From Spirochaetaceae bacterium (lineage in GTDB: Bacteria; Spirochaetota; Spirochaetia; WTKD01): a stretch of DNA of 64,000 nt. The position numbers and the translations under genes are program-made. Shown one piece after another: positions 4,856 to 60,129 of this stretch; within the stretch, counting starts at the first letter, position 1, and every line of letters begins with the position of its first letter. Location of the stretch: NCBI GenBank assembly GCA_011524535.1, contig WTKD01000003.1:1-64000 (forward strand), written 5' to 3'. The notes beneath the pieces are model-generated. The model searched no databases. It saw nothing but the letters and a program-made list of their open reading frames with translations, and was not told where the DNA came from.

Positions 4856-5272
4856 TTAGGACGGCAGTAATGCGTCGAAAAAATCTTGAACGTTGCTTGT
4901 ATTTGCCAACAGATTAGATTTTTCCTCGTCTAAAACAACCTGTGTAAGTTTTTCCATAACAGGAATATGCTCTGCTGCATTTGCCGCAATACCGACAACA
5001 ACCGTGGCAGGATCGCCATCCCAATCAACAGGAGGCTTACATTGGACTACAATAAGCCCTGTCTTTTTCACCATGTGGACTTCACTTTTTCGTCCATGTG
5101 GAATAACAACACCGTTTTTTAGATAGGTGCAGGTTTCGGCTTCACGAGCGTTTAAGCTATCGAGGTACCCTTCTTCGACCAAATCGTTTTCACGCATTTT
5201 TTCATAGAGGAATTCCATAACCGCAGACTTATTCGAGAGTGATATATTGAGATGAACATGAATTAGTGACAT
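4856..5272 (-). CDS. mtlF: Mannitol-type PTS enzyme IIA component
   Basis: A 138-residue IIA protein of the fructose/mannitol family. It accepts phosphate from HPr and passes it to the IIB domain of MtlA. The phospho-accepting histidine lies in NGVVIPHGRKSEV (about residue 60), preceded by the conserved LNAREAET block. It is divergent from mtlA, and the two form a complete mannitol permease with IIA on a separate chain. The start codon lies only 5 bases after a TATAAT -10 box and has no ribosome binding site, which suggests a leaderless message. Moving the start downstream would remove the conserved first strand. Confidence 0.92.
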   Translation of the reverse strand: MSLIHVHLNISLSNKSAVMEFLYEKMRENDLVEEGYLDSLNAREAETCTYLKNGVVIPHGRKSEVHMVKKTGLIVVQCKPPVDWDGDPATVVVGIAANAAEHIPVMEKLTQVVLDEEKSNLLANTSNVQDFFDALLPS

Positions 5273-5277
5273 GAATC

Positions 5278-5306
5278 ATTATAAGGTACATATTCTTTTT
5301 ATTCAA
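5278..5306 (-). promoter_or_regulatory. Promoter of mtlF, leaderless type
   Basis: On the minus strand the -35 box TTGAAT (5301-5306) and the -10 box TATAAT (5278-5283) are 17 bases apart. The mtlF ATG begins 5 bases after the -10 box, which is where transcription should start. This is one of the best promoter matches in the window. It lies 20 bases from the divergent mtlA promoter. Confidence 0.75.
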
Positions 5307-5326
5307 TATTCATTTATTTTCAATTC

Positions 5327-5355
5327 TTGTGTCCTGTATGAATGTGTGATACAAT
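5327..5355 (+). promoter_or_regulatory. Promoter of mtlA-mtlD
   Basis: The -35 box TTGTGT (5327-5332) and the -10 box TACAAT (5350-5355) are separated by 17 bases. Transcription would start near 5362, giving mtlA a leader of about 23 bases with a GGAGG site. This contrasts with the leaderless layout of the opposing mtlF promoter. Confidence 0.7.
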
Positions 5356-5384
5356 TAAACATACAAAAATCTATGGAGGTATAT

Positions 5385-6752
5385 ATGGATTTTAGGACAC
5401 GTGTCCAAAAATTTGGTTCATTTCTCAGTGGGATGGTTATCCCGAACATTGGGGCATTTATTGCATGGGGGCTTATCACCGCTTTATTTATCCCAACAGG
5501 TTGGATACCCAATGAGAACCTTAGCGCTCTAGTAGGGCCAATGATTGTGAATCTGCTACCACTTCTTATCGGATTTACCGGTGGAAAGATGGTATATGGT
5601 CATCGAGGAGGTGTACTAGGAGCAGTAGCAACGATGGGTGTTGTTGTTGGATCGACTATACCAATGTTCCTTGGAGCTATGTTAGTAGGTCCATTAGCTG
5701 GTAAATTGATGGAAATGGTCGACCGAATGTTCGAAGGAAAAGTGAAAGCTGGCTTTGAGATGTTGGTCAACAATTTCTCAGCTGGAATCTTAGGATTAGG
5801 TATAGCTTTGCTTTCATATCTCGTTATTGGTCCAGTTGTTTCTTGGTTCACTGGCTTGGTTACTGCCGGGGTTGAATTTCTCGTTGCAAGTAGACTCCTC
5901 CCATTAGCTAGTGTTTTGATAGAACCAGCTAAGGTTCTCTTCTTGAATAATGCCTTGAATCATGGTGTTCTTGGTCCAATTGGTGTTGAGCAAGCAGAAA
6001 CTGCAGGAAAATCAATTATGTTCTTGCTCGAAACGAATCCAGGTCCAGGACTTGGTTTGTTGCTTGCATACATGTTTTTCAGCAAAAGCGTCACTGCAAA
6101 AAGATCAGCTCCAGGAGCGATTATCATTCACTTCTTTGGTGGTATTCACGAATTGTACTTTCCGTATGTCTTGATGTACCCACGAACCATTATCGCCGTT
6201 ATTCTTGGTGGAATGGTCGGAGTTTTGACCTTCTTGGTTACCGGTGCTGGACTTTCTGCAACTCCTTCTCCTGGAAGTATTTTTGCGTTGCTAGCGCTTA
6301 CCCCTCCTGGAAACTTCTTTGGAGTTCTCGCAGGTATAACACTTAGTGCAACTGTTTCATTCTTGGTTTCAATGATACTCTTGCGATCGCAGAAAGCAGA
6401 ACAAGTAAGTCTTGGTGAAGCCGTTGATAGTGTGTCTGCTATGAAAGGTAAGACCAGCCATGCTGCAACATTGACAGGTGTTGAAGAAATCATCTTTGCC
6501 TGTGATGCTGGTATGGGTTCAAGTGCTATGGGTGCTTCTCTTCTTCGTAAGAAAGTAACCGAATCTGGACTAAATATTTCAGTGGTTAACAAATCAATCA
6601 ATGATTTGAGTGGAAACGAAAAACTTATCGTTACTCATAAAACACTTGAAAGTAGAGTCAAGCAAAAATCACCAAACGCAAAAGTATTCCTTGTGGATAA
6701 TTTCCTCGATGAATCTCTATACGACTCTGTCGTAAGCAGTATCCGAAGCTAA
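5385..6752 (+). CDS. mtlA: Mannitol PTS permease, enzyme IICB
   Basis: Membrane transporter that takes up mannitol and phosphorylates it to mannitol 1-phosphate. From the chosen start (GGAGG 5 bases upstream) it has 455 residues. The N-terminal IIC domain carries several membrane helices and the GGIHELYFPYVLMYP motif near residue 250. The C-terminal IIB domain carries the phosphocysteine in IIFACDAGMGSSAMGASLL (about residue 368). There is no IIA domain at the C-terminus; mtlF supplies it. The 38-codon upstream extension of the frame crosses the promoter and is not part of the gene. mtlD follows after one base. Confidence 0.95.
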   Translation: MDFRTRVQKFGSFLSGMVIPNIGAFIAWGLITALFIPTGWIPNENLSALVGPMIVNLLPLLIGFTGGKMVYGHRGGVLGAVATMGVVVGSTIPMFLGAMLVGPLAGKLMEMVDRMFEGKVKAGFEMLVNNFSAGILGLGIALLSYLVIGPVVSWFTGLVTAGVEFLVASRLLPLASVLIEPAKVLFLNNALNHGVLGPIGVEQAETAGKSIMFLLETNPGPGLGLLLAYMFFSKSVTAKRSAPGAIIIHFFGGIHELYFPYVLMYPRTIIAVILGGMVGVLTFLVTGAGLSATPSPGSIFALLALTPPGNFFGVLAGITLSATVSFLVSMILLRSQKAEQVSLGEAVDSVSAMKGKTSHAATLTGVEEIIFACDAGMGSSAMGASLLRKKVTESGLNISVVNKSINDLSGNEKLIVTHKTLESRVKQKSPNAKVFLVDNFLDESLYDSVVSSIRS

Positions 6753-6753
6753 A

Positions 6754-7863
6754 TTGACAGCAATACACTTTGGTGCTGGTAATATTGGAAGAGGGCTTAT
6801 TGGCCCTCTTCTTTATTGGTCGGGATACACAACAACATTCATCGATCTGAACGAAGAACTGATCGGATTCCTTTCAACAACAGATGGATACAGTATTATT
6901 CGAGAAGGCGAGAAACATCGAATCTCGAATATAGATGGGTGTCATGCCAGAAATACAGAGAAACTCATGAAGGCATTCCTGGACGCTTCACTCATTACGA
7001 CCGCAATTGGTCCAAATATTCTCAAGCACATAGCACCCACAATTGCGCAAGGTTTGGAGGCGCGTAAAAAGGCAGGACTCCCCTGTATTCCGATTATTGC
7101 TTGTGAAAATATGATAAACGCCAGTTCACAACTACGGGCATTGACTAAAGAGCATATGAATCTTACTGAAGACGAATACAATGCAGCTGCCATCTTTCAT
7201 AATTGTGCCATTGATTGTATCGTCCCCCCACAAAAACCTGATTTCAACCTGGTATACACAGAGGCACATCATGAATGGGTAGTTGAATCTATTCCTGAGT
7301 CTCCGCTTGGCGAAATACAAGGGATGAAACTCGTGCCTACCCTCACCCCTTATATGGAAAGAAAACTTTTTTCTCTCAATCTTCCCCATGCTGCGACGGC
7401 CTATGCTTCATACCGGTTAGGCTATACAACAATACCCGAGGGGTTGCGTGACTCAAAGGTGTTGGACCATGTTAATGCTGTTTTCAGTGAGATTTCTCAC
7501 TATATAATAACGGTGCATGGATTTTCTCAAGAAGAACAAGATACATATGTAACCAACACATTGGAGCGATTTAGAGCCATCGATGATGCTGTTGTAAGGG
7601 TTGCTCGAGCTCCCATCCGCAAACTTCAAAAAAGTGAACGATTTGCACTTCCAATACAGAAACTGTCCTCATTAGAAATGAATTTCTCTGCTATCGGACA
7701 GGGGCTTTTGAACTTGCTAGCATTTGACTTTGACGGTGATGAGGAAGCGGTAGTGTTGCAAAATGAGATTGAAGAATTAGGAATCGCTACAGTGATAAAA
7801 AAACACGCCGATTTCAATGACCAACTCGTCTCTAAAATACTGGATCAAAAGTCAATTTTTTAA
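6754..7863 (+). CDS. mtlD: Mannitol-1-phosphate 5-dehydrogenase
   Basis: Converts mannitol 1-phosphate to fructose 6-phosphate with NAD. The 369-residue protein has the N-terminal NAD-binding motif FGAGNIGRG (residues 6-14) and the polyol-dehydrogenase catalytic motif K-x4-N-x2-H in ERKLFSLNLPHAATAY near residue 210. It opens with a TTG codon one base after the mtlA stop and lacks a strong ribosome binding site, so its translation is probably coupled to mtlA. It ends 10 bases from the convergent gene at 7874, with no terminator hairpin visible between them. Confidence 0.95.
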   Translation: MTAIHFGAGNIGRGLIGPLLYWSGYTTTFIDLNEELIGFLSTTDGYSIIREGEKHRISNIDGCHARNTEKLMKAFLDASLITTAIGPNILKHIAPTIAQGLEARKKAGLPCIPIIACENMINASSQLRALTKEHMNLTEDEYNAAAIFHNCAIDCIVPPQKPDFNLVYTEAHHEWVVESIPESPLGEIQGMKLVPTLTPYMERKLFSLNLPHAATAYASYRLGYTTIPEGLRDSKVLDHVNAVFSEISHYIITVHGFSQEEQDTYVTNTLERFRAIDDAVVRVARAPIRKLQKSERFALPIQKLSSLEMNFSAIGQGLLNLLAFDFDGDEEAVVLQNEIEELGIATVIKKHADFNDQLVSKILDQKSIF

Positions 7864-7873
7864 TTCGTACTTC

Positions 7874-8152
7874 CTATTTTTTCCGGCTATAATATATACT
7901 GGAAATCGCTAAAGCAACCAACAGAGCAGAAAACAAGGGAGGATACGCGTTTACTTGTCCGAACAGTCTAGACAGCGTACCACCAAGAAATTCTTCGAAA
8001 AGGCTGTAGAAAACTCCTCCAATTATGCTGGATATGAGTGAAACCAAGAAAGCTCCAACAACCCCCCCAGGAAACTTTATCTGTAAAAGGGTCACAAGAA
8101 TTACAGCCGTCATACCAGCAATTCCCATGTATACGATCGTAAAATAAAGCAT
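7874..8152 (-). CDS. Small integral membrane protein
   Basis: The 92-residue protein has about three hydrophobic segments, with glycine-rich turns (FPGGVVGAFLVSLISSIIGGVF) and a basic tail (YYSRKK). I do not recognise the family; the glycine-rich helices loosely recall GlsB/YeaQ-type proteins. It starts one base after the stop of the upstream lipoprotein-like gene and is the last gene of the long minus-strand run that begins with recA. Confidence 0.6.
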   Translation of the reverse strand: MLYFTIVYMGIAGMTAVILVTLLQIKFPGGVVGAFLVSLISSIIGGVFYSLFEEFLGGTLSRLFGQVNAYPPLFSALLVALAISSIYYSRKK

Positions 8153-8153
8153 T

Positions 8154-16123: not shown

Positions 16124-17185
16124 TTACCTGGGTTTTTCCTGCTCGCTGGATTCAAGCACATTTTTCACATTGGGGAATATGAGTTCACGCAATTTATTTT
16201 CCAGGCTTTCGAATATTTTTGGATTTTCTTTCAGAAAGTTTTTTACATTTTCACGCCCCTGCCCGATTCTCTCGTTTCCGTATGAGTACCATGAGCCACT
16301 TTTCCCGATGAGATCGAAGCGAATTGCTGCGTCTAGGAGCGAAGCTTCGGCAGAAATCCCCTGTCCAAATAGTATCTCGAGCTCTGTTTTTTTGAAGGGA
16401 GGCGCCATTTTATTTTTTACTACTCTGACTCGGACCCTATTTCCAAGAACTTCATCGCTACCACTACGAGTAATACTTTCGATTCTTTTTACCTCGATAC
16501 GTATCGATGCATAGAATTTGAGAGCATTTCCACCGGTTGTAGTTTCTGGATTTCCATAGACTACTCCGATTTTCATACGGGTTTGGTTTATGAAAATGAG
16601 AGCACAACTCGATTTCGAGACAATCCCGGTTAATTTTCTTAGAGCTTGGCTCATGAGACGAGCTTGCAGCCCCATATGTGAGTCACCCATTTCACCACGA
16701 ATTTCGGCCTGCGGGGTGAGTGCGGCGACGGAGTCGACAACGATGAGGTCTATGCCACCAGAACGGATGAGTTGTTCGGTTATTTCAAGCGCTTGTTCTC
16801 CACTATCGGGCTGTGAGACCCATAATTCATCGATATTTACACCCAACTTTGCTGCGTATGAGGGATCTAGCGCATGCTCGGCATCTATAAAGGCAGAAAC
16901 TCCACCTTTTTTTTGGGCTTCTGCGATAGAATGCAATGCTAATGTCGTTTTTCCCGATGATTCATGCCCATAAATTTCTATAACCCTTCCCTGAGGATAG
17001 CCTCCTACGCCGATGGCTTCATCCAATAACAATGAACCGGTTGGAATGACAGGTATTTTCACACCACCTGGGCGTTCACCCAACTTCATGATGGAACCTT
17101 TTCCATATTGTTTTTCAATCTTAAGTCTAGTAGTTTCTATGGCTTGTTCTTTTTCATCTAACTGGTTTGCATTTTTTTCACTCAT
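16124..17185 (-). CDS. recA: Recombinase RecA
   Basis: Strand-exchange ATPase for homologous recombination. At 353 residues it is a usual length. Walker A reads GHESSGKT (about 75-82), with histidine in place of the frequent proline. Walker B is [11 protein letters not shown], and the DNA-binding loop region contains [25 protein letters not shown] ribosome binding site precedes the ATG by 6 bases. The promoter region is shared with the divergent prs and holds a palindrome. folK, scpA-like and scpB follow closely. Confidence 0.97.
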
Positions 17186-17205: not shown

Positions 17206-17235
17206 TTGTAAGTGTGAAGATACACTGTGTATACT
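17206..17235 (+). promoter_or_regulatory. prs promoter (leaderless type) with palindrome in the recA-prs gap
   Basis: The -35 box TTGTAA (17206-17211) and the -10 box TATACT (17230-17235) are 18 bases apart, and the prs ATG begins 5 bases after the -10 box. A perfect inverted repeat ATACAC-T-GTGTAT (17220-17232) overlaps this promoter. A minus-strand TACAAT (17205-17210) could be the recA -10 box, so the palindrome would fall in its spacer or -35 area. It is a candidate operator acting on both genes. Confidence 0.5.
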
Positions 17236-17240: not shown

Positions 17241-18338
17241 ATGCACGGATCTTTGCGAATTGCTTCAACTTTATCGATGGTTGAGTACGCAAAGTCGATG
17301 AGTTATCACATACAAACATTCCCCGATCAATACAAAAAGCAGAAAAAAAACCTGCTCGTACAAATGAATAAACGATGGTTTGCGGATGGGAGCTTTGAAG
17401 TTTTGGTAGAAGAATCGGTAAGAGATAACGACGTAGTATTGGTGACCGGTTCTTCGCGAACCGAGGAAACTTCGTTTGCGGATAACGAACTCGAATTGTA
17501 TTACACAATAGATGCTTTACGTAGGGCTTCTCCGTCGCGATTAACAGTATTTGAACCCTATTGTGCGGTTTCTCGATCAGACCGTGCTACTACCAGAAAC
17601 AGTGTTGGCATGTGGGTGCATTACAAAATCTTGCAGAGTTTGGGCATGGATCATTACATGACATATATGTTGCATTCGGATAAATCAAAATCGATTTTTG
17701 ATCCCACACGTTCCGTTATTGATGATCTTCCTACTTCCCCACTTATTATTGAGTATATTTTGGATGAATTCATTATAAAAAGTGGTCTAACACTTGAAGA
17801 AGTGCGCAAGAACTGGGTTTTTTGTGCAGTGGATGCAGGTGGTGCTGGCGTTGCGCGACTCTATGCCAATACATTTGGTACTCCCCTTGTTGTTGCGCAT
17901 AAAATTCGTAATCATAAGAAACCGAATCAGGTAGATTCGATAAAAATTCTGTCTAGCGTCTCACTTGAAGGGAAAATAGTATGGGTAGTTGATGATATGG
18001 TGGACACTGGGGGTTCCATTCTCATACTGATGCAAGAACTAAAAAAACAAGGAGCTTCTCGCATAAATGTGGCTATTTCTCATGGGGTTTGTTCACCTCC
18101 TGCGCTGGCTCGACTGCAAGATGCCTACGAGAAGGATATATTTGAATCTTTTGTCATAACCAATACGATTTTGCCACCAGGCATAAAGGATGTTCCGTTT
18201 GTACGGATTATCGACACAACTCGCCACGGGGCTTCGGTTCTTATTCGTATGCACGAGGGGGAAAGTTTGTCACCTTTCTTTGATCCTTTTGATGTAGAGA
18301 GACACATAGAGCAGTCCGCACATAAATTTGATCATTAA
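17241..18338 (+). CDS. prs: Ribose-phosphate pyrophosphokinase
   Basis: Makes PRPP from ribose 5-phosphate and ATP. The protein of 365 residues from this start is longer than the usual 310-320. The PRPP-binding loop is [12 protein letters not shown] (about residues 251-262). The ATP-loop region is visible as [35 protein letters not shown]. The start [17 protein letters not shown] is chosen because the conserved first strand begins there and the -10 box lies 5 bases upstream. The GTG nine codons earlier would fall upstream of the predicted transcript start. Confidence 0.92.
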
Positions 18339-20744: not shown

Positions 20745-21392
20745 TTATATATCGCAAAATTCTGCATGCGTTTCACTATTAAAAAATGAATTTCCGCTAA
20801 CGACATACGTAGCACCCTTTTCTACAAGACGTCTAATATTTTTTGGCGTAATTCCCCCATCAACCGATATTTCGAATGAAAAGCCTGATGAACATTTAAA
20901 TGCGTGCAGTTGTTCAATTTTTTCTTCTGTGGTTTTTATTATTTTTTGACCGCCATAACCTGGGTCTACAAGCATTATTACTATCAATTGTAGCTTATCA
21001 GCTATATTTTTTATCGATTCAATCGGAGTATTTGGGAGAAGTGCGACCCCTGCATGCATGTTCTCCTTACGTATTTGGTCGATCAAGCGGTGCGGATGGT
21101 AGGTAGTTTCAAGATGAAAAGTACAAGCATTGCACCCAGCATTCGCACATTGTGTCACATGGCGCTCTGGGTTTGTCACCATAAGATGCGCATCAAAATA
21201 CAAAGATTCCCGTTTCCTCAAGGATTCTATGATTGGATATCCCATACTAATCGGAGGAACAAAATGTCCATCCATAATATCTAGATGTACTCGTTCGATT
21301 CCTGATGAATGTATCAAAGCAAATGCATCCTTTAAATGATAAAAATCGGCACCCAAAAGTGAAGGAACTAGGTATTTCTTGCAAAATTTCAT
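20745..21392 (-). CDS. rpe: Ribulose-phosphate 3-epimerase
   Basis: Interconverts ribulose 5-phosphate and xylulose 5-phosphate. The 215-residue TIM-barrel protein carries VPSLLGADF at the N-terminus, the metal ligands in VHLDIMDGHFVPPISMG (about 36-52), FDAHLMVTNPE (about 68-78), and SVDGGITPKNI near 173-183. The start is preceded by TATACT six bases upstream and by no ribosome binding site, so it may be leaderless. It is divergent from the 21483 TPR gene. Confidence 0.95.
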   Translation of the reverse strand: MKFCKKYLVPSLLGADFYHLKDAFALIHSSGIERVHLDIMDGHFVPPISMGYPIIESLRKRESLYFDAHLMVTNPERHVTQCANAGCNACTFHLETTYHPHRLIDQIRKENMHAGVALLPNTPIESIKNIADKLQLIVIMLVDPGYGGQKIIKTTEEKIEQLHAFKCSSGFSFEISVDGGITPKNIRRLVEKGATYVVSGNSFFNSETHAEFCDI

Positions 21393-21398: not shown

Positions 21399-21427
21399 AG
21401 TATATCGTTACATCATAACTAGATAAA
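21399..21427 (-). promoter_or_regulatory. Candidate rpe promoter, leaderless type
   Basis: On the minus strand the -10 box TATACT (21399-21404) ends 6 bases before the rpe ATG. The -35 position at 17-base spacing reads TTTATC (21422-21427), a weak match. On the other strand TTGACT (21440-21445) and TACCCT (21463-21468) at 17-base spacing could drive the TPR-greA operon with a leader of less than 10 bases. Confidence 0.45.
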
Positions 21428-46159: not shown

Positions 46160-46188
46160 ATAGTAATAAGCAAATGAGAAAGAAACAA
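46160..46188 (-). promoter_or_regulatory. bamA promoter, leaderless type
   Basis: On the minus strand the -35 box TTGTTT (46183-46188) and the -10 box TACTAT (46160-46165) are 17 bases apart. Five Ts separate the -10 box from the ATG at 46154. No ribosome binding site is present. Confidence 0.6.
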
Positions 46189-47162: not shown

Positions 47163-50100
47163 CTATTCTAGGCTGAAATCCCAAGAAAAGCCTACTTCTT
47201 GGCTTCTTATAAATTCTTGATCTGAAGATGTTGGAAAAATCCTCCAATCTAGTAAATAGAGCGGGGTTTGTAGGGCAAAGTGTATTTCGGTAAAAAGATC
47301 GAGATTGCCTTGACTAGCATAGAGGTTCTCTTTTTCTCTGAGATGCAAGAAGGCTTCCGCATATAAATAATCCGTAATACTATTACCAATGGTAAAATAG
47401 GCATTGTGAAAAATGGTGCTCAGAACGGTATTAACTGCATTTCTATTGAGAGATGTTCGAGTCTGATCTAGAGCGTATAATTGATATGCAAGATTCGGAA
47501 TAATAGAAAAACGGAAATCGAGGGTATCAACCCCAAGTTCTGTCCGTATATAATCCAGAGCCTCTGATGTTCCTGATGGAGAACCGTTTAATAAGACGGT
47601 ATCTAGGAATCCAAATAGGTTATAGAGACTATTTGAATTGTCTATATCATCATCTAGTCCAATACTGGCTAGTAGTTCTGGTCCTGAAATATCTGAATTT
47701 GAGCTTAGTTGAGGTGAATAGGTTATGAGAGGTTCTTGGAGAGCTGTTAAGAAAATGGATGTGTTCTGGCCATTGATAAACTCTTGAGATACACCAACGT
47801 GTGAAACAAGAATCTCAAGCTCATTTTGCCTATCGACGAACTGTATATTTCCTTCGCGTAGCCGGAACAAGCGATTAAAATAGACGATATCTCCACTCCT
47901 GATAGCCAGATTACCATCTACTCGAAATTTCCCGGTGGCATTATTTCTTGTAAGGTGCAATGCTTGGTTTTTATATGCGACCATACGTAGTATGGGGGAA
48001 TCATTAAATGGCCAAACAAATCGCACAGAATCTCCAGCGAGAATAGTTAAATCAAGCGAATCTACAACAAAAGGGTCTCCATCTAAAATGAGTGAGAATT
48101 CAGCGTTATCAACTTTTATACCTCCCGTAAAATTGATGGTGTCTGGACCACCTGATATCTGTACTTCTCCTCTGGCAAATCCATCAGCATAAATGGGAGC
48201 AAAGAGGTATTTGATATGTATTCCGTTTGGATCATCGGATTTGATGTCCATCCTGTAGTATTTTAGCTCGTTATCATCAAGAAAAAATTCTGCAGCGAAA
48301 AAAGCCGATCCTTTTCCATTTACGAGGTAAAATTCGGGGATAAATACTCTATTATTGTCGAATACTATCTCGATATTGGCTGGTCCTAGAGCTTCTGGTG
48401 AAAAGATTGTAGTTCCGCGTACTCCGTTAACGCTTATTTTTCCAGAAAACACCGGTTCATAATAGAATCCTTCTAGACTAAGAGTTCCAGAAGCTATTCC
48501 TTCATGGGCTTCAAACACATCAAAAAAGTTTACGGAATCTAATGATATTACGTTGAGATAATACAATGAAATTGTTCCGTCTAACGCGCCAGAAGACCCT
48601 ACACTGAGTGAAACAGATGCAGAACCAAATGAGTCTGGTGTGTAGATTGCTTCGATTTGTCTAGTTTTTGGTTGATACAGTATTTCTATCGTTTGATTGC
48701 TATCTCGCAGTAGTATGTAGTTTCTGGCGTCGTTGGTGTCAGTGTGTGGAGATTGAATCAAAAAGGTATTGTCTGGTTTTCCCGTTTCAGCATCACTGAC
48801 ACCGATTTGTACGGACATGGGTACTACCGAATGACCAATATTTTGCACAAGGTTCATGATTGGTACGGTTCCATCTATGCTAAGTTGCCGTGTGTTTCTC
48901 GTAAATTCATTCCTTATAGAGGCAAAGCCAGTTAATGAAGTAGAGAGAAAATCATAAGAAATAGTATCGATTGAGATATCGTTGTTTGGAACGGAGAATT
49001 GAGAATCGTATACATTGAGTGTGTCTTCAATAATGGACAGGTTAACATCCCCTGAAAAAGAATTCTCATTTGTAATGTACTTGAGATACATGTCTTCTAG
49101 AAAATACTTACTCTCGTGATCAAATTGAAGTTCTCCCGAAAGGATACCTTCCAAGGTAGGCGAAAATCGTTCTGCTTGTATATTTTGTAACAGCACTTGG
49201 GTTTGATTTTGTGGTGACGATGGATCGGGGCTTATTCGAATTTCTTCATTGCCGCTCCGTAATAGACCAGAAAATCCTTGTCCCGGTAAGCGATATATGC
49301 TTCCTACTAGGGTATCCGATCCCAATCTCCAATGTATGTTTTCTATTTGCAGTGAATCATTTGAAAATGACCCAGAGGCAGTGAATTCTCTGTTTTGTTC
49401 TATATTATGTATACGAACGAAAGGAAGAGCAATTGACCATTCATTATCGGTTATATTGCCTAGAAGAGATGCATCGAGAGTAGAATTCTGGAATGGAGGA
49501 AATGGGCTTGAGAATTTCTCTATTTGTACTGTAAGTGAATTATTCGATTCGGATGCAGCATTGTACTCAATAGTTATAGAACTAGCACCGTATGGTTCCT
49601 CCATGATTTGCAATCTTGTTAATTGATCCGATATCAAACCGTCCAGAGCATATTGATATTGTTCTAAAATCATTGTGCCTGTAATGTCTTGCGAGTCTAG
49701 GTTGTAGGTGAATGAAGCGGAGTATGGGATATCTTGACCAGGAGCCTGTATATGTAATTGATTAGCGGTAAAGATATTGTTTGCGTAGACAAAATCCATA
49801 CTCATTAGGGATTCTTGTCGTAGCAAAACTTCTGCACTAGCTCCTATACTCGGAGTAAGCAAAAGATTGTTGTCGAACCATATATCAGCCTCAAGATTTA
49901 CCATGATTTCGTCTAGTTGGCTGTAATTCAAAAATTCGGAATATTCGCTGTCTCCGTCAAGAAATATCTTTGCGAGTTCCGCTATCGTTTTTCCGCGAAT
50001 ATTATTCGTAGTAAATCTATAGCTGGCAATTTCTTCTATTTCTGCAGGCTCTAATTGAAGTATTTGGTCCTGTGACAATTCAATAAATAGTGAACTATTG

Positions 50101-51485
50101 CTAATTATGTCCTGTGTGGAAAATGATGCATCGATGTTTTCCACAAGCAAATTATTCACAAACAAATCAAAGCCAACAACAGAATAAATGCCCTCCGGCG
50201 ATACGTTGATGTTGAGCATCCCGCTGAAGTTTTGTATATATGGGAGTATGGTAAGCGATTGAGCTTCAAGAATTCCCTCTGCATATCTATCGTTCATACG
50301 CATGGTTCCAGAAAAATTTGCTGAATTTTCTTCAGATTGAGATAGACGAGCATTGTTTATGGTGAGTAAATCTTGGTTTCCAATTGCATCGAGTAAAAGG
50401 ACAGGTTCTTCCTTTGTTTCAGAAGTAAGCGCAAGTATTGTAGAGTATTCAAAGGTATTCAGAGTTCCTTCTGCCTCAATATTTGTAGCAATAGAAAACG
50501 TGGAATCGCTTTCGCCAATGAGCGCTTCTGTCAAATTGAACTGTCGAATCGTGGAAAGCTCGGTAGAGATAGGATTTTCTGTGTCTAAAAGATATCGATT
50601 TGCCTCTAATGCATTTGTCTGCATACGCAAAGACCAAGAATTATCTGGAAAAAACATATTTCCGGAGATCTCAAGTTCATCCGATTGTTCATTATTTCCC
50701 ATAACTTGGAGAGAAGTATCTGTTCCCTGGACACGTAGCCGTTGAGAACTGATTTTGAGGCCTAAGATATCGATTTGTCCAAGGTTGATCTCCATTTCAA
50801 ATTCTTCAAAACCATCAAAAATGGTTGTTTCGAGTTCGCCTGCGACAAATACGGTCAAGAAATCGTTAACTCTTAGATCTACATGCACACTTGAATCTAG
50901 AGCAAATGTATTTTCTTCTTTCGGTGTATAGGAGAAATCTGAAAGCATTCCGTTCCATTGAACATTTTCTTGCTCATATGAATACATGATTTGATCAACG
51001 TATATTCCTGGTGGAGAGAATGGTTCATCTAATGGAGAAGTATTCTCTGCGTCAAAAAGCATTTCTATATCTTGTCTGAGGTCAGTAATTCTTTCGGATA
51101 ATTGATTAAAATCTTCTTCCTCTTCAAGCAGATCAAACGTGATATTTTTTATGTATATGTTTTGGATGATGGGTGATTCTGATCCCAGAAAAAACTGAAA
51201 AACGTTAAATTCTAGGGTCATTCTATCTAACATTGCCATCGCATCTTCTGAACTTTCCCCAAAGGCAACGTTATGCAATGCGATAGAATTTATACTTTGC
51301 AAAGTGATTAATTCATACTGAAATAAATTTTGTATACTACTTGGAATCGCGTCGGTAAATACATCTTCGAGGTATTGGAATCCAAGTGAGGTAGCAAAAA
51401 CAGTGAGGCATGAAAAAAGAAATATGCTCCCTACTAGTAACCAATACTTGTAGGTTTTTTTCTCTATTCTTTTTATAGGTACCAT
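47163..51485 (-). CDS. tamB: TamB-like translocation and assembly module protein (DUF490)
   Basis: A very long (1440-residue) envelope protein that bridges inner and outer membranes and is linked to lipid transport and outer-membrane assembly. It has one N-terminal membrane helix (about 14-34) and then almost only beta strands. The C-terminal DUF490 part contains IRSGDIVYFNRLFRLREGNIQFVDRQNELEI. The start MVPIKRIEKK is chosen because GAGGAAG precedes it; the 64-codon extension runs across the tmk promoter region. Its position upstream of bamA and skp matches Treponema. Confidence 0.88.
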   Translation of the reverse strand: MVPIKRIEKKTYKYWLLVGSIFLFSCLTVFATSLGFQYLEDVFTDAIPSSIQNLFQYELITLQSINSIALHNVAFGESSEDAMAMLDRMTLEFNVFQFFLGSESPIIQNIYIKNITFDLLEEEEDFNQLSERITDLRQDIEMLFDAENTSPLDEPFSPPGIYVDQIMYSYEQENVQWNGMLSDFSYTPKEENTFALDSSVHVDLRVNDFLTVFVAGELETTIFDGFEEFEMEINLGQIDILGLKISSQRLRVQGTDTSLQVMGNNEQSDELEISGNMFFPDNSWSLRMQTNALEANRYLLDTENPISTELSTIRQFNLTEALIGESDSTFSIATNIEAEGTLNTFEYSTILALTSETKEEPVLLLDAIGNQDLLTINNARLSQSEENSANFSGTMRMNDRYAEGILEAQSLTILPYIQNFSGMLNINVSPEGIYSVVGFDLFVNNLLVENIDASFSTQDIISNSSLFIELSQDQILQLEPAEIEEIASYRFTTNNIRGKTIAELAKIFLDGDSEYSEFLNYSQLDEIMVNLEADIWFDNNLLLTPSIGASAEVLLRQESLMSMDFVYANNIFTANQLHIQAPGQDIPYSASFTYNLDSQDITGTMILEQYQYALDGLISDQLTRLQIMEEPYGASSITIEYNAASESNNSLTVQIEKFSSPFPPFQNSTLDASLLGNITDNEWSIALPFVRIHNIEQNREFTASGSFSNDSLQIENIHWRLGSDTLVGSIYRLPGQGFSGLLRSGNEEIRISPDPSSPQNQTQVLLQNIQAERFSPTLEGILSGELQFDHESKYFLEDMYLKYITNENSFSGDVNLSIIEDTLNVYDSQFSVPNNDISIDTISYDFLSTSLTGFASIRNEFTRNTRQLSIDGTVPIMNLVQNIGHSVVPMSVQIGVSDAETGKPDNTFLIQSPHTDTNDARNYILLRDSNQTIEILYQPKTRQIEAIYTPDSFGSASVSLSVGSSGALDGTISLYYLNVISLDSVNFFDVFEAHEGIASGTLSLEGFYYEPVFSGKISVNGVRGTTIFSPEALGPANIEIVFDNNRVFIPEFYLVNGKGSAFFAAEFFLDDNELKYYRMDIKSDDPNGIHIKYLFAPIYADGFARGEVQISGGPDTINFTGGIKVDNAEFSLILDGDPFVVDSLDLTILAGDSVRFVWPFNDSPILRMVAYKNQALHLTRNNATGKFRVDGNLAIRSGDIVYFNRLFRLREGNIQFVDRQNELEILVSHVGVSQEFINGQNTSIFLTALQEPLITYSPQLSSNSDISGPELLASIGLDDDIDNSNSLYNLFGFLDTVLLNGSPSGTSEALDYIRTELGVDTLDFRFSIIPNLAYQLYALDQTRTSLNRNAVNTVLSTIFHNAYFTIGNSITDYLYAEAFLHLREKENLYASQGNLDLFTEIHFALQTPLYLLDWRIFPTSSDQEFIRSQEVGFSWDFSLE

Positions 51486-51560
51486 ATCTTCCTCAATGAG
51501 CTTAAATTTACAACATAAGCGCATTTTCGACATAACAATTATAACAGCGATGTAGTTACG

Positions 51561-51590
51561 TTGACCATAGAGACCATAACGACTGACAAT
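51561..51590 (+). promoter_or_regulatory. tmk promoter, leaderless type
   Basis: The -35 box TTGACC (51561-51566) and the -10 box GACAAT (51585-51590) are 18 bases apart. The ATG follows the -10 box by 5 bases. No ribosome binding site is visible. The region also serves the divergent tamB. Confidence 0.5.
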
Positions 51591-51595
51591 GTAGT

Positions 51596-52219
51596 ATGCC
51601 ATTCGTATTTCCAAAGGATCAACCGATAGCAAAGAACATGATTGTCCTTGAAGGAATCGACGGTGCAGGAAAATCACAACTTACCCGAGCATTGAGTACA
51701 AAGACAGTACGCGGAACATCAATTTTTACAACGCAGGAACCGACGGATGGTCTAATAGGAACATTGTTAAGAAAATATCTAGATTCAAGTTCTCATTTAT
51801 TTTCTCCTAGGACAGCAGCCTATTTGTTTGCTGCTGATCGATACGAACATTTGCACGGTTCAGACGGTATTCTTTCTAAAAACGATACTTCATATGTTCT
51901 CATTGATCGGTACATCTTTTCTTCTTTTGCCTACCAAGGGTTGAATGTAGGTTATAAGGTTCTCTGGGATCTCAACAGGGAATTCCCTTTTCCAGAAACG
52001 TTGATATATCTCGATCTGCCAATCGAAGTTGCCTGGCAACGAATACGAAAGAATAGAATGGCAAAGGATCATTTTGAGACGATAGCGTTGTTGGAGAAAA
52101 TAAAAGAACGATATGAAGAGATTCTACGCTTATTGGAAGATAGCGAGGTAAATATTCTCCGTATACAAGCAGATATTCCTCCAGAAAGACTGGCCGAAGT
52201 GGTTATACAAGCATTATAA
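51596..52219 (+). CDS. tmk: Thymidylate kinase
   Basis: Phosphorylates dTMP to dTDP. It has 207 residues from this ATG. The P-loop is VLEGIDGAGKSQLT (about 17-30), the DRY-type motif is VLIDRYIFSSFAYQG (about 100-114), and DLPIEVAWQRIRKNRM lies in the lid region. The first ATG adds 14 residues before the canonical MIVLEGIDG; it is chosen for its fit to the promoter, but 51638 is possible. The next gene follows after 17 bases. Confidence 0.93.
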   Translation: MPFVFPKDQPIAKNMIVLEGIDGAGKSQLTRALSTKTVRGTSIFTTQEPTDGLIGTLLRKYLDSSSHLFSPRTAAYLFAADRYEHLHGSDGILSKNDTSYVLIDRYIFSSFAYQGLNVGYKVLWDLNREFPFPETLIYLDLPIEVAWQRIRKNRMAKDHFETIALLEKIKERYEEILRLLEDSEVNILRIQADIPPERLAEVVIQAL

Positions 52220-55565: not shown

Positions 55566-56044
55566 ACTGGAACCCCATTATGCGATAGAATATGGGTCAA
55601 GGCCACCGCAATAGCATCGCTGGCATGTGATGGAATATTTTTTACAGGGATTTTCAATATGATGGAAATCATCGTATTTACCTGGTGTTTACTGGCTTTC
55701 CCTATTCCCGCAACACATTTTTTCACCTCATTTGGAGAATAATTCATAATCGAAAGCCCGCCATGGATTCCAGCAAGGCGAATAACACCGATTGCTTCAG
55801 ATACCGCGAAAGCGCTCGAAACATTTATACCAAAATACAATTTTTCGAGTGCGATCGCACGCACATTGTACTCTTTGATGAGTAAGCAACATGTAGTATA
55901 TATGTGGTTTAGCCGGTGTTCGATGGGCTCAGTACTACTTGTAGAAATGACCGATTGATGGAGTATTTTTGGGCGTTGGGCGTTCATCTCTAATACGGCA
56001 ACGCCGGTAGACGCAATCCCTGGATCTATTCCCATGCACGTCAT
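55562..56044 (-). CDS. ruvC: Holliday junction resolvase RuvC
   Basis: Endonuclease that cuts Holliday junctions, 160 residues from this ATG. The acidic residues are in MGIDPGIASTGVAVLE (first Asp), ALEKLYFG (Glu) and SHASDAIAVAL (last Asp). The third catalytic position is histidine (HASD), the arrangement known from some RuvC enzymes instead of DAAD. A GTG one codon earlier overlaps the yebC stop and could also serve. Confidence 0.94.
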   Translation of the reverse strand: MTCMGIDPGIASTGVAVLEMNAQRPKILHQSVISTSSTEPIEHRLNHIYTTCCLLIKEYNVRAIALEKLYFGINVSSAFAVSEAIGVIRLAGIHGGLSIMNYSPNEVKKCVAGIGKASKHQVNTMISIILKIPVKNIPSHASDAIAVALTHILSHNGVPV

Positions 56045-56772
56045 CACTCAACGATGCATTCGGGATCCAAATTGTTGGCAACTTCTTGAACATCATCGTT
56101 GTCTTCCAACAATTCAATGATTTTTAATACTTTTGCTGCTTTTTCGCTATCAAGAGAAATAAAATTGTCTGGAAGCAATGCCTGTTCGGCGTAGAGGGGG
56201 CTAAAGGACTGTAATGCTTGGTGGACTTCATCAAAGCTGTTCGATTCTGTAATTACAGTGAATTCTTTTTGCTCGGTTTCAACATTCTCTGCACCAGCCT
56301 CAAGCGCGGCTTCAAAGAGTTCGTCTTCCGACACATTGTCAGAAGAAATGCGAATGATGCCTTTTCGCGCAAACATATACGAGACACAGCCGTTTTCGCC
56401 GAGATTCCCCCCGTGCTTGTTGAAAATACTTCTCACATCGGCAGTGGTTCGATTTTTATTATCGGTTAAGCATTGAATAAGGAGGGCCACTCCACCCGGA
56501 CCATAGCCTTCAAAGGAACATTCTTCATACTGAACGCCTTCTAATTCCCCAGTACCCTTCTTTATGGCGCGCTCGATATTATCATTGGGCATGTTTACCC
56601 CACGGGCCTTAATAATCGCGTTTCTCAATGCTGGATTTGCATCCATCGATCCGCCACCTGCACGTGCAGCAACGGAGATTTCACGAATGATTTTGGTGAA
56701 AAGTTTGCCCCTTTTAGCGTCTTGTGCACCCTTTTTGTGTTTTATGGTTGACCATTTACTATGTCCGGACAT
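56044..56772 (-). CDS. yebC: YebC/PmpR family protein
   Basis: The 242-residue member of the YebC family (also linked to relief of ribosome stalling at proline runs) opens [32 protein letters not shown], the invariant N-terminus, and has [29 protein letters not shown] near 88-115. The next gene, ruvC, is the usual neighbour. A promoter with a -10 box ending 8 bases before the ATG suggests a leaderless or near-leaderless message. Confidence 0.96.
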
Positions 56773-56780
56773 GTACAGTT

Positions 56781-56809
56781 AGCGTACAAGCAGAAGCATA
56801 GGTTGTCAA
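56781..56809 (-). promoter_or_regulatory. yebC-ruvCAB-queA promoter, near-leaderless
   Basis: On the minus strand a consensus -35 box TTGACA (56804-56809) and -10 box TACGCT (56781-56786) are 17 bases apart. The ATG lies 8 bases after the -10 box, so the transcript would carry 0-2 untranslated bases. No ribosome binding site fits. Confidence 0.65.
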
Positions 56810-56856
56810 TATTTTCGGTATCTGCATAGCTATTGTGCAGGTAGTGTACTCAGTAA

Positions 56857-56878: not shown

Positions 56879-56897
56879 CATACAATGAATAAAGGGC

Positions 56898-57614
56898 CTA
56901 GTATGCCTTATACATATGAATAGGCCAATACCGAAAGACGACCAGGGAACGTATTGATGAGATAGGAAGGCTGCTCCAATATCGTGAATCAAGACCCTCT
57001 TTTCGATTGTCAGATAACACGAATACATGCCCCTCGGGGACACGTATCTCATCGAATGTGCCGGTATATGGGGCATTGATACTGGATGTAGTCGAAAGAT
57101 CGGACCGAATGGAATATGCAGCATCAATCAATTCAAATTCTGATCGTGGGGAAGAGCTATCCTCAGTGAAAATGGATGCTTCAAATGTATTCATCGAAAT
57201 CCTTTCGTATTCAAATGCAATTATTCTTCGTAATGCAAGCTTGCGTATATCTGTAGGGTATATTCCAAAACTGATAGCATCGAGTAACAATTCCAAGGCA
57301 ACAGTGTTAAAAGAGCCTTCCTGTATACGAACAGCAACTATACGGCCGCGAAGATTCGTTTTGTTTTCCTTCTTCAATGCATCTCGTGCGAACCATCCGG
57401 CAAGCGGGCTCACAACGACCCTGTCTCCAGGGAGTAATTCCGGATTCATCTGCGCTGAAGAAATACCCACGGGATAGCCTAGGAATTGCACAAGAAAGAG
57501 GCGCATTGCAACGGTTAAAATATATAAATATATAACACGACGCAAAATACCCCGTGATTGACGACCCCTCCCCCTATTCGATTTATATACTTGAAATCGT
57601 GGGTATATAGCCAT
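56898..57614 (-). CDS. Signal peptidase I paralogue lacking the catalytic dyad
   Basis: The 238-residue protein aligns with LepB: one N-terminal membrane helix (about 26-46), the box GISSAQMNPELLPGDRVVV matching the family's P-x-G-S-M-x-P-x-L-x-x-G-D, and a C-terminal box VLSDNRKEGLDSRYWSSLPISSI matching GDNRxxSxDSRxxG. The nucleophile serine is glutamine (AQM, codon at 57450-57452), and the general-base lysine of KRVxGxPGD is arginine (LRRIIAFEYER). It should therefore be inactive as a peptidase. It starts 1 base after the lepB stop and is co-transcribed with it. Confidence 0.8.
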   Translation of the reverse strand: MAIYPRFQVYKSNRGRGRQSRGILRRVIYLYILTVAMRLFLVQFLGYPVGISSAQMNPELLPGDRVVVSPLAGWFARDALKKENKTNLRGRIVAVRIQEGSFNTVALELLLDAISFGIYPTDIRKLALRRIIAFEYERISMNTFEASIFTEDSSSPRSEFELIDAAYSIRSDLSTTSSINAPYTGTFDEIRVPEGHVFVLSDNRKEGLDSRYWSSLPISSIRSLVVFRYWPIHMYKAY

Positions 57615-57615
57615 C

Positions 57616-58575
57616 CTATTCTATGCTTCCGAATCTATTGAAAGGGAAAAATCTAAATAAGGGGCGCCCTATGAGCAATTCGTTGTCTACAGCGCCGAAA
57701 AAACGAGCATCACGCGAATTGTCCCTGTTGTCACCCATGGGAAAAAATTGATCTTGTCCGACATGCCATCCTTGGCTGTATAGTTTATAGCGCATTGCTT
57801 CTGATACGCTGTAGGGAGCAATTTGTAACCCGGCTTGATGCCTTATTATTCCATAGAAAAATGGGTCGATTTGCTGCGAAACTGCAAAGTCTTCTAGTCT
57901 TTGTTGTTCTTGTATATCGAGGATACCGTAGTCTGCTCTGGCAGAGAGGGCTATGTATTCTTCTAGTAGTTCTTTGTCTTCATCGGATTCGCGATAGTTG
58001 ACCGCTGTTTTGCTAAACCGCATTATTTCTCTCTCATCGAACCATGCATCAGTCCCTGCCGGTGATAGATATACCTTTCCCTGTTCGTATCTAAGCGAAT
58101 CTCCAGGCAAGCCCACGACGCGTTTTACCAATAATTCGGCTCGTATTTGCCCATCCCTATCGCGATCTATATTTACGGTTCCAAGCGAAAGAAGGTGGAG
58201 AAAACGCTGTATTATTGTGAATAGAGAGCCCTGTGGACGATAGCTGGGGTTTTGAAAAACAACTATTTCCCCCCGTTTTGGAGCACGTATAGAGGGTATT
58301 TTTGCAAAATAAGGGATTAACACTGGCCCGAAGGTTACTTTCTCGACAAATATTCTGTCATTTAATGCAAATACTGGAATCATGGAACCGGTAGGTATGA
58401 CGTATGCCTGAAGAACTAGCTGATTTATTAGAAATACAACTCCAATTGCCCAAAGAAATTCATACAGAAATAGGAGGATTTTTGATCTTCCTTTTCTTTT
58501 TTCCTCTCTCCGTTTTTTGCGGTATTTTCTATAACTAAGAAACGATTCGGTGACATGAATCATCCATTGTGTCAT
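57616..58575 (-). CDS. lepB: Signal peptidase I
   Basis: Membrane serine protease that removes signal peptides of secreted proteins, 319 residues. It has a basic N-terminus, one membrane helix (about 32-54), the nucleophile box VIPTGSMIPVFALNDRIFV (Ser near 73), the lysine box LVKRVVGLPGDSL (about 150-162), and MGDNRDNSRDARFFGAV near 277-293. An insertion of about 80 residues lies between the last two boxes. The -10 box ends 6 bases before the ATG. Confidence 0.95.
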   Translation of the reverse strand: MTQWMIHVTESFLSYRKYRKKRREEKRKGRSKILLFLYEFLWAIGVVFLINQLVLQAYVIPTGSMIPVFALNDRIFVEKVTFGPVLIPYFAKIPSIRAPKRGEIVVFQNPSYRPQGSLFTIIQRFLHLLSLGTVNIDRDRDGQIRAELLVKRVVGLPGDSLRYEQGKVYLSPAGTDAWFDEREIMRFSKTAVNYRESDEDKELLEEYIALSARADYGILDIQEQQRLEDFAVSQQIDPFFYGIIRHQAGLQIAPYSVSEAMRYKLYSQGWHVGQDQFFPMGDNRDNSRDARFFGAVDNELLIGRPLFRFFPFNRFGSIE

Positions 58576-58581
58576 AGGCTA

Positions 58582-58610
58582 AGCATATCGGAGAGTGTCT
58601 TACCGAACAA
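58582..58610 (-). promoter_or_regulatory. lepB promoter, leaderless type
   Basis: On the minus strand the -35 box TTGTTC (58605-58610) and -10 box TATGCT (58582-58587) are 17 bases apart. The ATG follows after 6 bases. It is divergent from the 58623 promoter, with only 12 bases between their -35 boxes. Confidence 0.6.
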
Positions 58611-58622
58611 GTCCGGTTGGTA

Positions 58623-58651
58623 TTGACAGAAGGTATACCTGCTACTATTAT
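58623..58651 (+). promoter_or_regulatory. Promoter of the 58660 gene-smpB operon, near-leaderless
   Basis: A consensus -35 box TTGACA (58623-58628) and -10 box TATTAT (58646-58651) are 17 bases apart. The ATG lies 8 bases after the -10 box, so transcription should begin at, or up to two bases before, the start codon. No ribosome binding site is present. Confidence 0.7.
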
Positions 58652-58659
58652 ATTCTTAC

Positions 58660-60129
58660 ATGCAGCGAGAGCGGGTCGTTCTAAAGCCGATTCTATCAAT
58701 GCGACCCACTGTGTATATTCCTATCATATGGGGAGTTCTTGGTATTGCAATAATCTTCCTTGTTTTTCTTCTCCATGGTATAAGGAACCGAGGCAGCATT
58801 GTAGAGATCACTGTTAGCCCTCCAAAAGCCAGTATTTTTGTAGATAACGAGTTTTTTGGCACCGATGCAGATAAATCGTTTTTGCCTTCTGGTTCGTATA
58901 CGTTGGAAGTACAAAAAACTGGGTATGTTCCTCATATAGAAAATCTAAAGACTTCAAATCGAATATTTGGAACCCTTTTCTTCCCATCCCGTAAGCGTAT
59001 TTCAGTGGAACTACAGCTGAAAGACGAAAATATCGTTCTTGGTTCTGCAATAAATGACTTTTCCTGGAGCAGTGATATAAATGAAAACGTGGTCTTTGGA
59101 TCAAAATTACCGCTCACCGAGACCGTGTCCGAAGTTCTTATGATTGGTAACACCGATCTTGCGCTTCGCTTACTTACAAAGGCGATCCCCTTCCTACCTG
59201 GAGAGAAAAATCATTACGATTTTCTTACCGCCCTGGACAGGTTAGAGGAATACGACCCGGCGGTTTTCGCCGATGCATTATCTATCTTTGCTTCTATGCA
59301 TCCGTATCTAGCACATTCTGAGGGGCGAATCTCCGCCGAAGTTTTGCAACGTATGGAAATTGGTTTGACTACAGGATCAAACGAAGAATCGGTAAGAACT
59401 ACCCATAATTACCTTACACAGATGGCAGAAAGGCAACAGGAATCTGGCGATCCGCTTGTTATTGCTGGAATAGAATTTAGCTCATTGCGAGGTGGGTTAT
59501 CGTATATGTTTGGAGAAAACGGAATCATATACCCCCAGCCCTATGATTTACCCGATTTTTTTATCATGCAAGATGAGATAAGCATAGCGCAGTATGAGCA
59601 GTTTTTTTCCTCCCCGTTTGCTTCAGGATATCCAGAAGATATACGTGCATCGTATGCTTCGTTCGACGAACTTGATGCATCAGTCGATGAAGAGGATGCT
59701 ATGCGCTTTGTAAGTCTTGCGGGGGCGCGTGCATTCGCTGATTATATAAACGAACTTCTTTCTGAAACGACGTACGGAAATGATTGGATTGCACGCTTAC
59801 CTTATGCCCATGAATGGGAGTATGCAACCCAGATTAACAACAGTCATGGCGCAATTTCAACAAAAACAGAGGCTTTGAATAGCGAATCAATAGGATTACG
59901 CGATCTAACCGGGGGAGTCTGGGAATGGATGGAGCAGCCGTATAATCCGCTGTACGGTTTTGTGAATGATAAGGACCTTGTATCAGTAGACTTACAGGAA
60001 GTACGTGGAGGGGCAACACACAGTGAAGAAGAGACTTTCTCTCCCCAGATTCGCGGAATGCAGGAGGTCGATTGGAAAACCGAATTTTTGGGTTTTAGAC
60101 TGGTTTTGGTTCCGAAACAAGAAGAATAG
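58660..60129 (+). CDS. Membrane-anchored PEGA / FGE-sulfatase-domain protein
   Basis: The 489-residue protein has one membrane helix near residues 20-42, then a PEGA domain (VEITVSPPKASIFVDNEFFG...LPSGSYTLEVQKTGYVP, about 47-95), a helical middle part, and a C-terminal formylglycine-generating-enzyme-like (SUMF1) fold: EISIAQYEQFF, ARLPYAHEWEYATQ, GLRDLTGGVWEWMEQPYN, VRGGATHSEEE, FLGFRLVLV. The two copper-binding cysteines of true FGE are not seen, so it is probably a structural or ligand-binding variant. It is followed by smpB after 20 bases. Confidence 0.85.
   Translation: MQRERVVLKPILSMRPTVYIPIIWGVLGIAIIFLVFLLHGIRNRGSIVEITVSPPKASIFVDNEFFGTDADKSFLPSGSYTLEVQKTGYVPHIENLKTSNRIFGTLFFPSRKRISVELQLKDENIVLGSAINDFSWSSDINENVVFGSKLPLTETVSEVLMIGNTDLALRLLTKAIPFLPGEKNHYDFLTALDRLEEYDPAVFADALSIFASMHPYLAHSEGRISAEVLQRMEIGLTTGSNEESVRTTHNYLTQMAERQQESGDPLVIAGIEFSSLRGGLSYMFGENGIIYPQPYDLPDFFIMQDEISIAQYEQFFSSPFASGYPEDIRASYASFDELDASVDEEDAMRFVSLAGARAFADYINELLSETTYGNDWIARLPYAHEWEYATQINNSHGAISTKTEALNSESIGLRDLTGGVWEWMEQPYNPLYGFVNDKDLVSVDLQEVRGGATHSEEETFSPQIRGMQEVDWKTEFLGFRLVLVPKQEE

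What the first reader, a model, noticed from the sequence alone, without database searches (positions are those of the whole stretch)
5272..58660. Repeated leaderless-mRNA layout at operon-leading genes of a spirochaete
At mtlF, prs, tmk, bamA and lepB a -10 box (TATAAT, TATACT, GACAAT, TACTAT, TATGCT) ends 5-6 bases before the start codon. A -35-like hexamer lies 17-18 bases further upstream, and there is no Shine-Dalgarno sequence. yebC and the 58660 gene have TTGACA-17-(TACGCT/TATTAT)-8-ATG. rpe has TATACT-6-ATG with a poor -35 box. Transcription would begin on or within about two bases of the start codon. Operon-internal genes and some leading genes keep ribosome binding sites, so both modes coexist. 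Leaderless genes of this kind are known in Deinococcus, actinobacteria and archaea. I am not aware of a systematic description for this spirochaete group.
Basis: partly seen in the sequence, partly recalled or inferred. Interest (0 to 1): 0.75.

Follow-up and report, generated by a model that had tools for sequence, protein, structure and literature searches.

The report
Leaderless genes common in a spirochaete
In this deep-branching spirochaete about a third of operon-leading genes have their promoter pressed against the start codon, so their messages should begin at the start codon without a ribosome landing site; this is a known type of gene, but it is unusually frequent here, and for a few housekeeping genes it is conserved across the whole spirochaete class.

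Summary
In 684 kb of the window's 1.42-Mb genome, a free-position motif search on operon-leading genes finds TAtaaT with a sharp peak 5-8 bases before the start codon (34% of 289 leading genes; shuffled upstreams mean 9%, maximum 24%). It is absent before operon-internal genes. A -35 box sits 17 bases further upstream (p = 1e-4). Genes led by a divergent neighbour are leaderless-type in 75 of 150 cases. E. coli shows no peak; Deinococcus deserti does. Six of eight other Spirochaetia genomes show the same peak. Conservation is gene-specific: rpe has no Shine-Dalgarno in 28 of 28 relatives, pyrG keeps TTGACA-17/18-NATAAT-8-ATG in 26-27 genomes of 18 families, and yebC is Shine-Dalgarno-led in 28 of 29 relatives and leaderless only in the window's lineage. 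Leaderless initiation is therefore the best explanation. It is a known kind: Spirochaetes were listed in a 2011 survey, and Leptospira transcript mapping found about 440 genes with 5' UTRs under 10 nt. New here are the high frequency, the class-wide gene-specific conservation, and a possible CTP-sensing start-site switch at pyrG. tmk and bamA are weak cases because their start codons are uncertain. No transcript 5' ends are available.

The parts
5301..5306 (-). -35-like hexamer TTGAAT, PTS IIA (mtlF-like) gene
   Evidence: spacer 17
5278..5283 (-). -10 box TATAAT, 5 bases before ATG (5272) of PTS IIA gene 4856-5272
   Evidence: leaderless posterior 0.96
17206..17211 (+). -35-like hexamer TTGTAA, prs
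   Evidence: spacer 18
17230..17235 (+). -10 box TATACT, 5 bases before ATG (17241) of prs 17241-18338
   Evidence: posterior 0.82; Pfam Pribosyltran_N
21399..21404 (-). -10 box TATACT, 6 bases before ATG (21392) of rpe 20745-21392; poor -35 (TTATCT)
   Evidence: posterior 0.97; rpe orthologues lack SD in 28 of 28 relatives
51561..51590 (+). TTGACC-18-GACAAT before ATG 51596 of tmk; weak case, start may be 51638
   Evidence: posterior 0.44; dTMP kinase
46160..46188 (-). TTGTTT-17-TACTAT, 5 bases before ATG 46154 of bamA; weak case, start uncertain
   Evidence: OM_YaeT
56804..56809 (-). -35 box TTGACA, yebC
56781..56786 (-). -10 box TACGCT, 8 bases before ATG (56772) of yebC 56044-56772; no SD, unlike the relatives
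   Evidence: posterior 0.78
58582..58587 (-). -10 box TATGCT, 6 bases before ATG (58575) of lepB 57616-58575; weak -35 TTGTTC at 58610-58605
   Evidence: posterior 0.79
58623..58628 (+). -35 box TTGACA of the 58660 gene
58646..58651 (+). -10 box TATTAT, 8 bases before ATG (58660) of gene 58660-60129 (FGE-sulfatase domain protein)
   Evidence: posterior 0.80
16124..17185 (-). recA: leading gene that keeps a Shine-Dalgarno sequence (contrast)
   Evidence: SD posterior 0.97

Best explanation
Roughly a quarter to a third of operon-leading genes in this spirochaete are transcribed from sigma-70-type promoters (TTGACA-like, 17 bp, TAtaaT-like) whose -10 box ends 5-8 bases before the start codon. RNA polymerase therefore starts on, or within about two bases of, the A of AUG and makes leaderless mRNA. 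Such mRNA would be translated by ribosomes recognising the 5'-terminal AUG, while operon-internal genes and the remaining leading genes use Shine-Dalgarno sites. The layout is old in class Spirochaetia for some genes (rpe, pyrG, probably lepA) and was extended to others such as yebC in the window's own lineage. Shown by sequence: promoter geometry, restriction to leading genes, lack of SD, and conservation. Inferred: the actual 5' ends and leaderless translation.
For: Free-position EM: TAtaaT peak at spacing 5 (25%), 6, 7 and 8; 34% of 289 leading genes against shuffles with mean 9% and maximum 24%; motif absent at internal genes. Fixed-matrix test p = 1.4e-5 for leading genes and p = 0.53 for internal genes. 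-35 enrichment, most often at spacer 17, p = 1.1e-4. Divergently led genes 75 of 150 leaderless-type, against 27 of 139 after a same-strand gap. Only 2 of 102 predicted leaderless genes have an SD match. Controls: E. coli none, D. deserti peak at 6. The same peak, with -35, in six of eight Spirochaetia genomes. Pyrimidine at -1 before leaderless-type starts in relatives, 68 of 88 against 161 of 313 for SD genes, p = 1.6e-5, fitting a start site on the A of AUG. Orthologues: rpe SD 0 of 28 with -10 score p = 2e-6; pyrG p = 8e-6; yebC SD 28 of 29 in relatives. Preferred start site 7 bp downstream of the -10 (PMC5730371).
Against: No mapped transcript 5' ends. Gene starts come from a simple home-made caller. 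In the window's own genome the pyrimidine preference at -1 does not differ between leaderless-type and SD genes (66 of 102 against 76 of 116), and AUG is not more frequent in leaderless-type genes (90 of 102 against 100 of 116). The fixed-matrix test was not individually significant in several 200-kb relatives. The absolute fraction depends on method: about 5% of all genes by the conservative count, 18% by EM.
Confidence: 0.87

Rival explanations
1. The start-adjacent AT-rich hexamers are unstructured or S1-binding stretches before non-SD leadered genes, and transcription starts further upstream.
For: Leading upstreams are AT-rich; non-SD initiation with AT-rich -20 to -10 is known in other phyla (PMC5397173).
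Against: The motif is a positioned TA...T hexamer with a -35 at 17 bp, not general AT richness. Dinucleotide shuffles do not reproduce it. It is absent before internal genes. rpe and pyrG keep promoter spacing across families.
Confidence: 0.06
2. Real promoters, but wrong start codons: the true starts lie downstream and the mRNAs have ordinary leaders.
For: Likely for some cases (tmk, bamA); the caller's starts are imprecise.
Against: yebC (MSGHSKW), pyrG (MKKYIFVTGG) and rpe have conserved N termini that fix the start. Few SD sites are associated with the leaderless class.
Confidence: 0.04
3. Chance: in a 40% GC genome TATAAT-like hexamers turn up near starts.
For: A reader choosing among about 24 leading genes would find some by chance; the raw pattern over all genomic ATGs shows little.
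Against: exceed the shuffled, shifted-position and internal-gene controls.
Confidence: 0.01

Closest known systems
Bacterial leaderless genes with a start-adjacent -10 motif (Deinococcus-Thermus, PMC12340547; Actinobacteria; survey PMC3160421)
   Same: TANNNT-type -10 about 12 bp upstream of the start, no SD, operon-first genes, coexistence with SD genes
   Different: Here in a 40% GC spirochaete, with recognisable -35 boxes and a spacing mode of 5 rather than 6-7
Leptospira interrogans leaderless transcriptome (PMC5243855)
   Same: Same phylum; about 440 genes with 5' UTR under 10 nt, 170-184 starting exactly on the start codon, by dRNA-seq
   Different: Different class; that study found no E. 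coli-like promoter motif, whereas here the promoters resemble sigma-70
E. coli/Salmonella pyrC and pyrD nucleotide-sensitive start-site switching (cited in PMC5730371)
   Same: Compared only with Spirochaetia pyrG: C or A-C at positions 7-8 after the -10 and a purine at position 9
   Different: No leader, hairpin or SD to sequester; the proposed output would be presence or absence of a 1-2 nt leader; untested
Bacillus/Streptococcus pyrG CTP-sensitive reiterative attenuation (PMC4448216)
   Same: Same gene, control thought to act at initiation
   Different: No room for a G-run start or terminator between the -10 and AUG in the spirochaetes

Membership tests
Bacterial leaderless genes (-10 adjacent type) | -10 hexamer ending about 5-8 bases before the start codon, above background, at leading genes only | tested here: met
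Bacterial leaderless genes (-10 adjacent type) | No Shine-Dalgarno sequence at the same genes | tested here: met
   2 of 102 have an SD match; rpe 0 of 28
Bacterial leaderless genes (-10 adjacent type) | Box looks like a sigma-70 promoter (-35 at about 17 bp) | tested here: met
   sequence only: p = 1.1e-4; pyrG -35 at 17/18 bp
Bacterial leaderless genes (-10 adjacent type) | Initiator context (-1 pyrimidine, +1 A of AUG) | tested here: inconclusive
   met in six relatives (p = 1.6e-5), not distinct from SD genes in the window's genome
Bacterial leaderless genes (-10 adjacent type) | AUG used almost exclusively | tested here: inconclusive
   ATG in 90 of 102 against 100 of 116 in SD genes
Bacterial leaderless genes (-10 adjacent type) | Mapped transcript 5' end at the start codon | not testable with these tools
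   no RNA data
Bacterial leaderless genes (-10 adjacent type) | Translation from the 5'-terminal AUG | not testable with these tools
   needs reporters or ribosome profiling
pyrC-type nucleotide-sensitive start-site switching (for Spirochaetia pyrG) | C at positions 7-8 and purine at position 9 after the -10 | tested here: met
   -1 C in 26 of 26, -2 A or C in 26 of 26, +1 A in 25 of 26
pyrC-type nucleotide-sensitive start-site switching (for Spirochaetia pyrG) | Leader hairpin that sequesters the ribosome site | tested here: not met
   only 8 bases between the -10 and ATG
pyrC-type nucleotide-sensitive start-site switching (for Spirochaetia pyrG) | Start site shifts with CTP level | not testable with these tools
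   needs primer extension or RNA-seq under pyrimidine limitation

The most novel reading that the evidence does not exclude
Across class Spirochaetia, CTP synthase (pyrG) is controlled by a leaderless start-site switch. With ample CTP, transcription starts at the invariant (A/C)C just before AUG, giving a 1-2 nt leader that is poorly translated. With low CTP it starts on the A of AUG, giving truly leaderless, well-translated mRNA. This would be end-product control in which the output is the presence of a leader, without repressor, hairpin or Shine-Dalgarno sequence.
Probability: 0.17. Interest if true: 0.75.

Novelty: new member of a known kind. Interest (0 to 1): 0.5.

Why it matters
Leaderless initiation in bacteria is usually associated with Actinobacteria and Deinococcus. 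Here a spirochaete with no close relative in the collection uses it at a rate comparable with those groups. Gene-by-gene conservation in its class (rpe and pyrG anciently leaderless, yebC converted in one lineage) gives a natural series for asking how 5' leaders are lost and kept. It also affects annotation: start codons and ribosome-site models trained on Shine-Dalgarno sequences will misplace starts in these genomes. The invariant bases before pyrG suggest a simple testable regulatory switch.

Tried and rejected
Counting TATAAT-N5-ATG over all genomic ATGs was too noisy to use, and the strict promoter pattern had no match in the genome. The D. deserti positive control failed with my own start calls and worked with annotated starts. 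De novo single-motif EM mostly found the SD motif. No 16S rRNA in the assembly, so the anti-SD tail and a 16S placement could not be checked. The genome-contig scan returned no close relative, and every held relative is listed only as same class. G020 gave no peak and looked odd in gene layout (13 internal genes of 125); not pursued. Reiterative-attenuation control of pyrG was rejected for lack of a leader.
Full report
What the window is. The window is contig C7:1-64000 of a 1.42-Mb, 14-contig genome (about 40% GC, 96% complete). A long GreA fusion protein (NF011309) at 22416-25124 finds homologues in 40 of 41 relatives, all labelled only 'same class'. A scan of named genomes gave Treponema, Spirochaetaceae and other Spirochaetia records at about 30-36% identity. 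It is therefore a deep lineage of Spirochaetia with no relative of the same order among those held. It has no 16S gene in the assembly.

Checking the observation. Six are well supported individually (IIA/mtlF, prs, rpe, lepB, yebC, 58660; leaderless posterior 0.78-0.97). tmk is ambiguous because the usual Tmk start (MIVLEGIDG) lies at 51638, and bamA because its signal peptide is preceded by an unusually long N-terminal stretch. The -35 boxes of rpe and lepB are poor. recA and several other leading genes keep Shine-Dalgarno sites.

Is it more than chance? I took 31 stretches of 20 kb plus the window (684 kb), called 561 genes with a simple coding-potential caller that does not look at upstream motifs, and split them into 289 leading and 198 internal genes. 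A two-motif expectation-maximisation with a flat positional prior converged on TAtaaT at spacing 5 (25%), 6 (15%), 7 and 8 (9% each), and on AGGAG at 4-6. The leaderless-type share of leading genes was 34%, against a mean of 9% and maximum of 24% in 20 dinucleotide shuffles. At internal genes the first motif dissolved. A cruder fixed-matrix count gave 55 hits at spacing 5-8 against 27.4 expected (p = 1.4e-5) at leading genes and 13 against 12.9 at internal ones. Predicted leaderless genes have a better TTGACA match upstream than at shifted positions (p = 1.1e-4), most often at 17 bp, and only 2 of 102 have an SD match. Genes with a divergent upstream neighbour are leaderless-type in 75 of 150 cases, against 27 of 139 after a same-strand gap over 60 bp. 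Estimates for the whole gene set run from 5% (crude excess) to 18% (EM); about 13% is a fair middle value.

Controls. E. coli (200 kb) has no peak (2 hits against 8.7 expected). Deinococcus deserti plasmid 3, with annotated starts, has a peak at 6 and 17% of leading genes by the same EM. With my own start calls the Deinococcus signal was lost, so the caller underestimates rather than creates the signal.

Other Spirochaetia. Eight further genomes of the class were sampled (165-200 kb each). Six show TATAAT- or TATACT-type peaks at 6-8 (leaderless-type share 12-34% of leading genes), each with -35 enrichment. G018, whose 917,330-bp contig suggests Borrelia (from memory), and G020 do not. Individually only G026 is significant with the crude test (p = 7e-5). 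In the six, the base before the start codon is a pyrimidine in 68 of 88 leaderless-type genes against 161 of 313 SD genes (p = 1.6e-5), the expected initiator context if transcription starts on the A of AUG. In the window's own genome this last contrast is not seen.

Gene-specific history. Genes with fixed N termini were compared across the class. yebC: 28 of 29 relatives have a Shine-Dalgarno sequence and none has a start-adjacent -10; only the window's genome has TTGACA-17-TACGCT-8-ATG without SD. rpe: 0 of 28 relatives have SD, and the -10 score at 5-9 bases far exceeds other positions (p = 2e-6). pyrG: the -10 is start-adjacent in 27 of 46 upstreams (2.3 expected), nearly always at exactly 8 bases, with -35 at 17 or 18 bp, in 18 of 29 families; SD-like sequences in 9, including the Borrelia-like family. 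lepA: intermediate (9 of 21, p = 4e-3). greA: none. Among reciprocal best hits leading in both genomes the table is LL/LL 7, LL/SD 9, SD/LL 4, SD/SD 27. So some genes are anciently leaderless in the class, and the window's lineage has converted more.

How it most likely works. Sigma-70-type RNA polymerase prefers to start 7 bp downstream of the -10 box (PMC5730371). With 5-8 bases between the -10 and AUG, it starts on or within two bases of the A. The resulting mRNA has no room for an SD and would be bound by ribosomes through its 5' AUG, as in Deinococcus and Mycobacterium. Geometry, restriction to leading genes and conservation are shown here; 5' ends and translation are inferred.

A side finding at pyrG. 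In the 26 distinct pyrG upstreams with the 8-base spacing, bases -3, -2 and -1 are Y, A/C and C without exception. In leaderless-type genes generally, C and T at -1 are equal (34:34), and at rpe C is 3 of 21. Positions 7-8 after the -10 would need CTP as first or second nucleotide; position 9 is the A of AUG, and 24 of 26 have no C in the first 11 coding bases (partly dictated by the protein sequence). This resembles E. coli pyrC/pyrD start-site switching (references cited in PMC5730371; the details of positions are from memory) and suggests a CTP-sensitive choice between a 1-2 nt leader and none. It is untested, and the window's own pyrG has lost the pattern (TACAAT-ACATT-ATG).

Comparison with what is known. 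Start-adjacent -10 boxes as a mark of leaderless genes were described in 2011 in 207 of 953 bacterial genomes, including 6 of 18 Spirochaetes at 1.8-6.9% of genes (PMC3160421), and tested experimentally in Deinococcus (PMC12340547). In Leptospira interrogans dRNA-seq found about 440 genes with 5' UTRs under 10 nt and 170-184 starting exactly on the start codon (PMC5243855). A literature search found no transcript map for a Spirochaetia species reporting leaderless genes (only open-licence papers searched).

Verdict. Observation confirmed, interpretation supported, novelty moderate. The frequency, the class-wide gene-specific conservation and the pyrG pattern are the parts worth pursuing.

Noticed in passing
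pyrG upstreams in L252-L280 and L320-L346: Spirochaetia pyrG has an invariant Y-(A/C)-C before ATG and exactly 8 bases after the -10 box in 26 distinct upstreams from many families; possible CTP-sensing start-site switch.
   Followed up: partly
window 5270-5273: The divergent PTS IIA gene (-) and the EIIBC gene (+) have start codons that overlap in one CATG; the EIIBC start has no clear promoter or SD and may lie downstream.
   Followed up: no
window 56898-58575: Two adjacent signal peptidase I genes (56898-57614 and 57616-58575) on the minus strand.
   Followed up: no
window 51596-51677: tmk (+) and the 1504-aa gene 47163-51677 (-) have overlapping 5' ends if the longest frames are used, so one or both starts are shorter.
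   Followed up: partly
window 61504-61843: tmRNA gene (Rfam RF00023).
   Followed up: no
G000 against G026, G024, G007, G025, G023, G006: The commonest -10 to start spacing is 5 in the window's genome and 6-7 in the relatives, hinting at a one-base shift in preferred start-site position.
   Followed up: partly
window 121-594: Small gene with an antitoxin SocA-like Panacea domain near the window edge.
   Followed up: no
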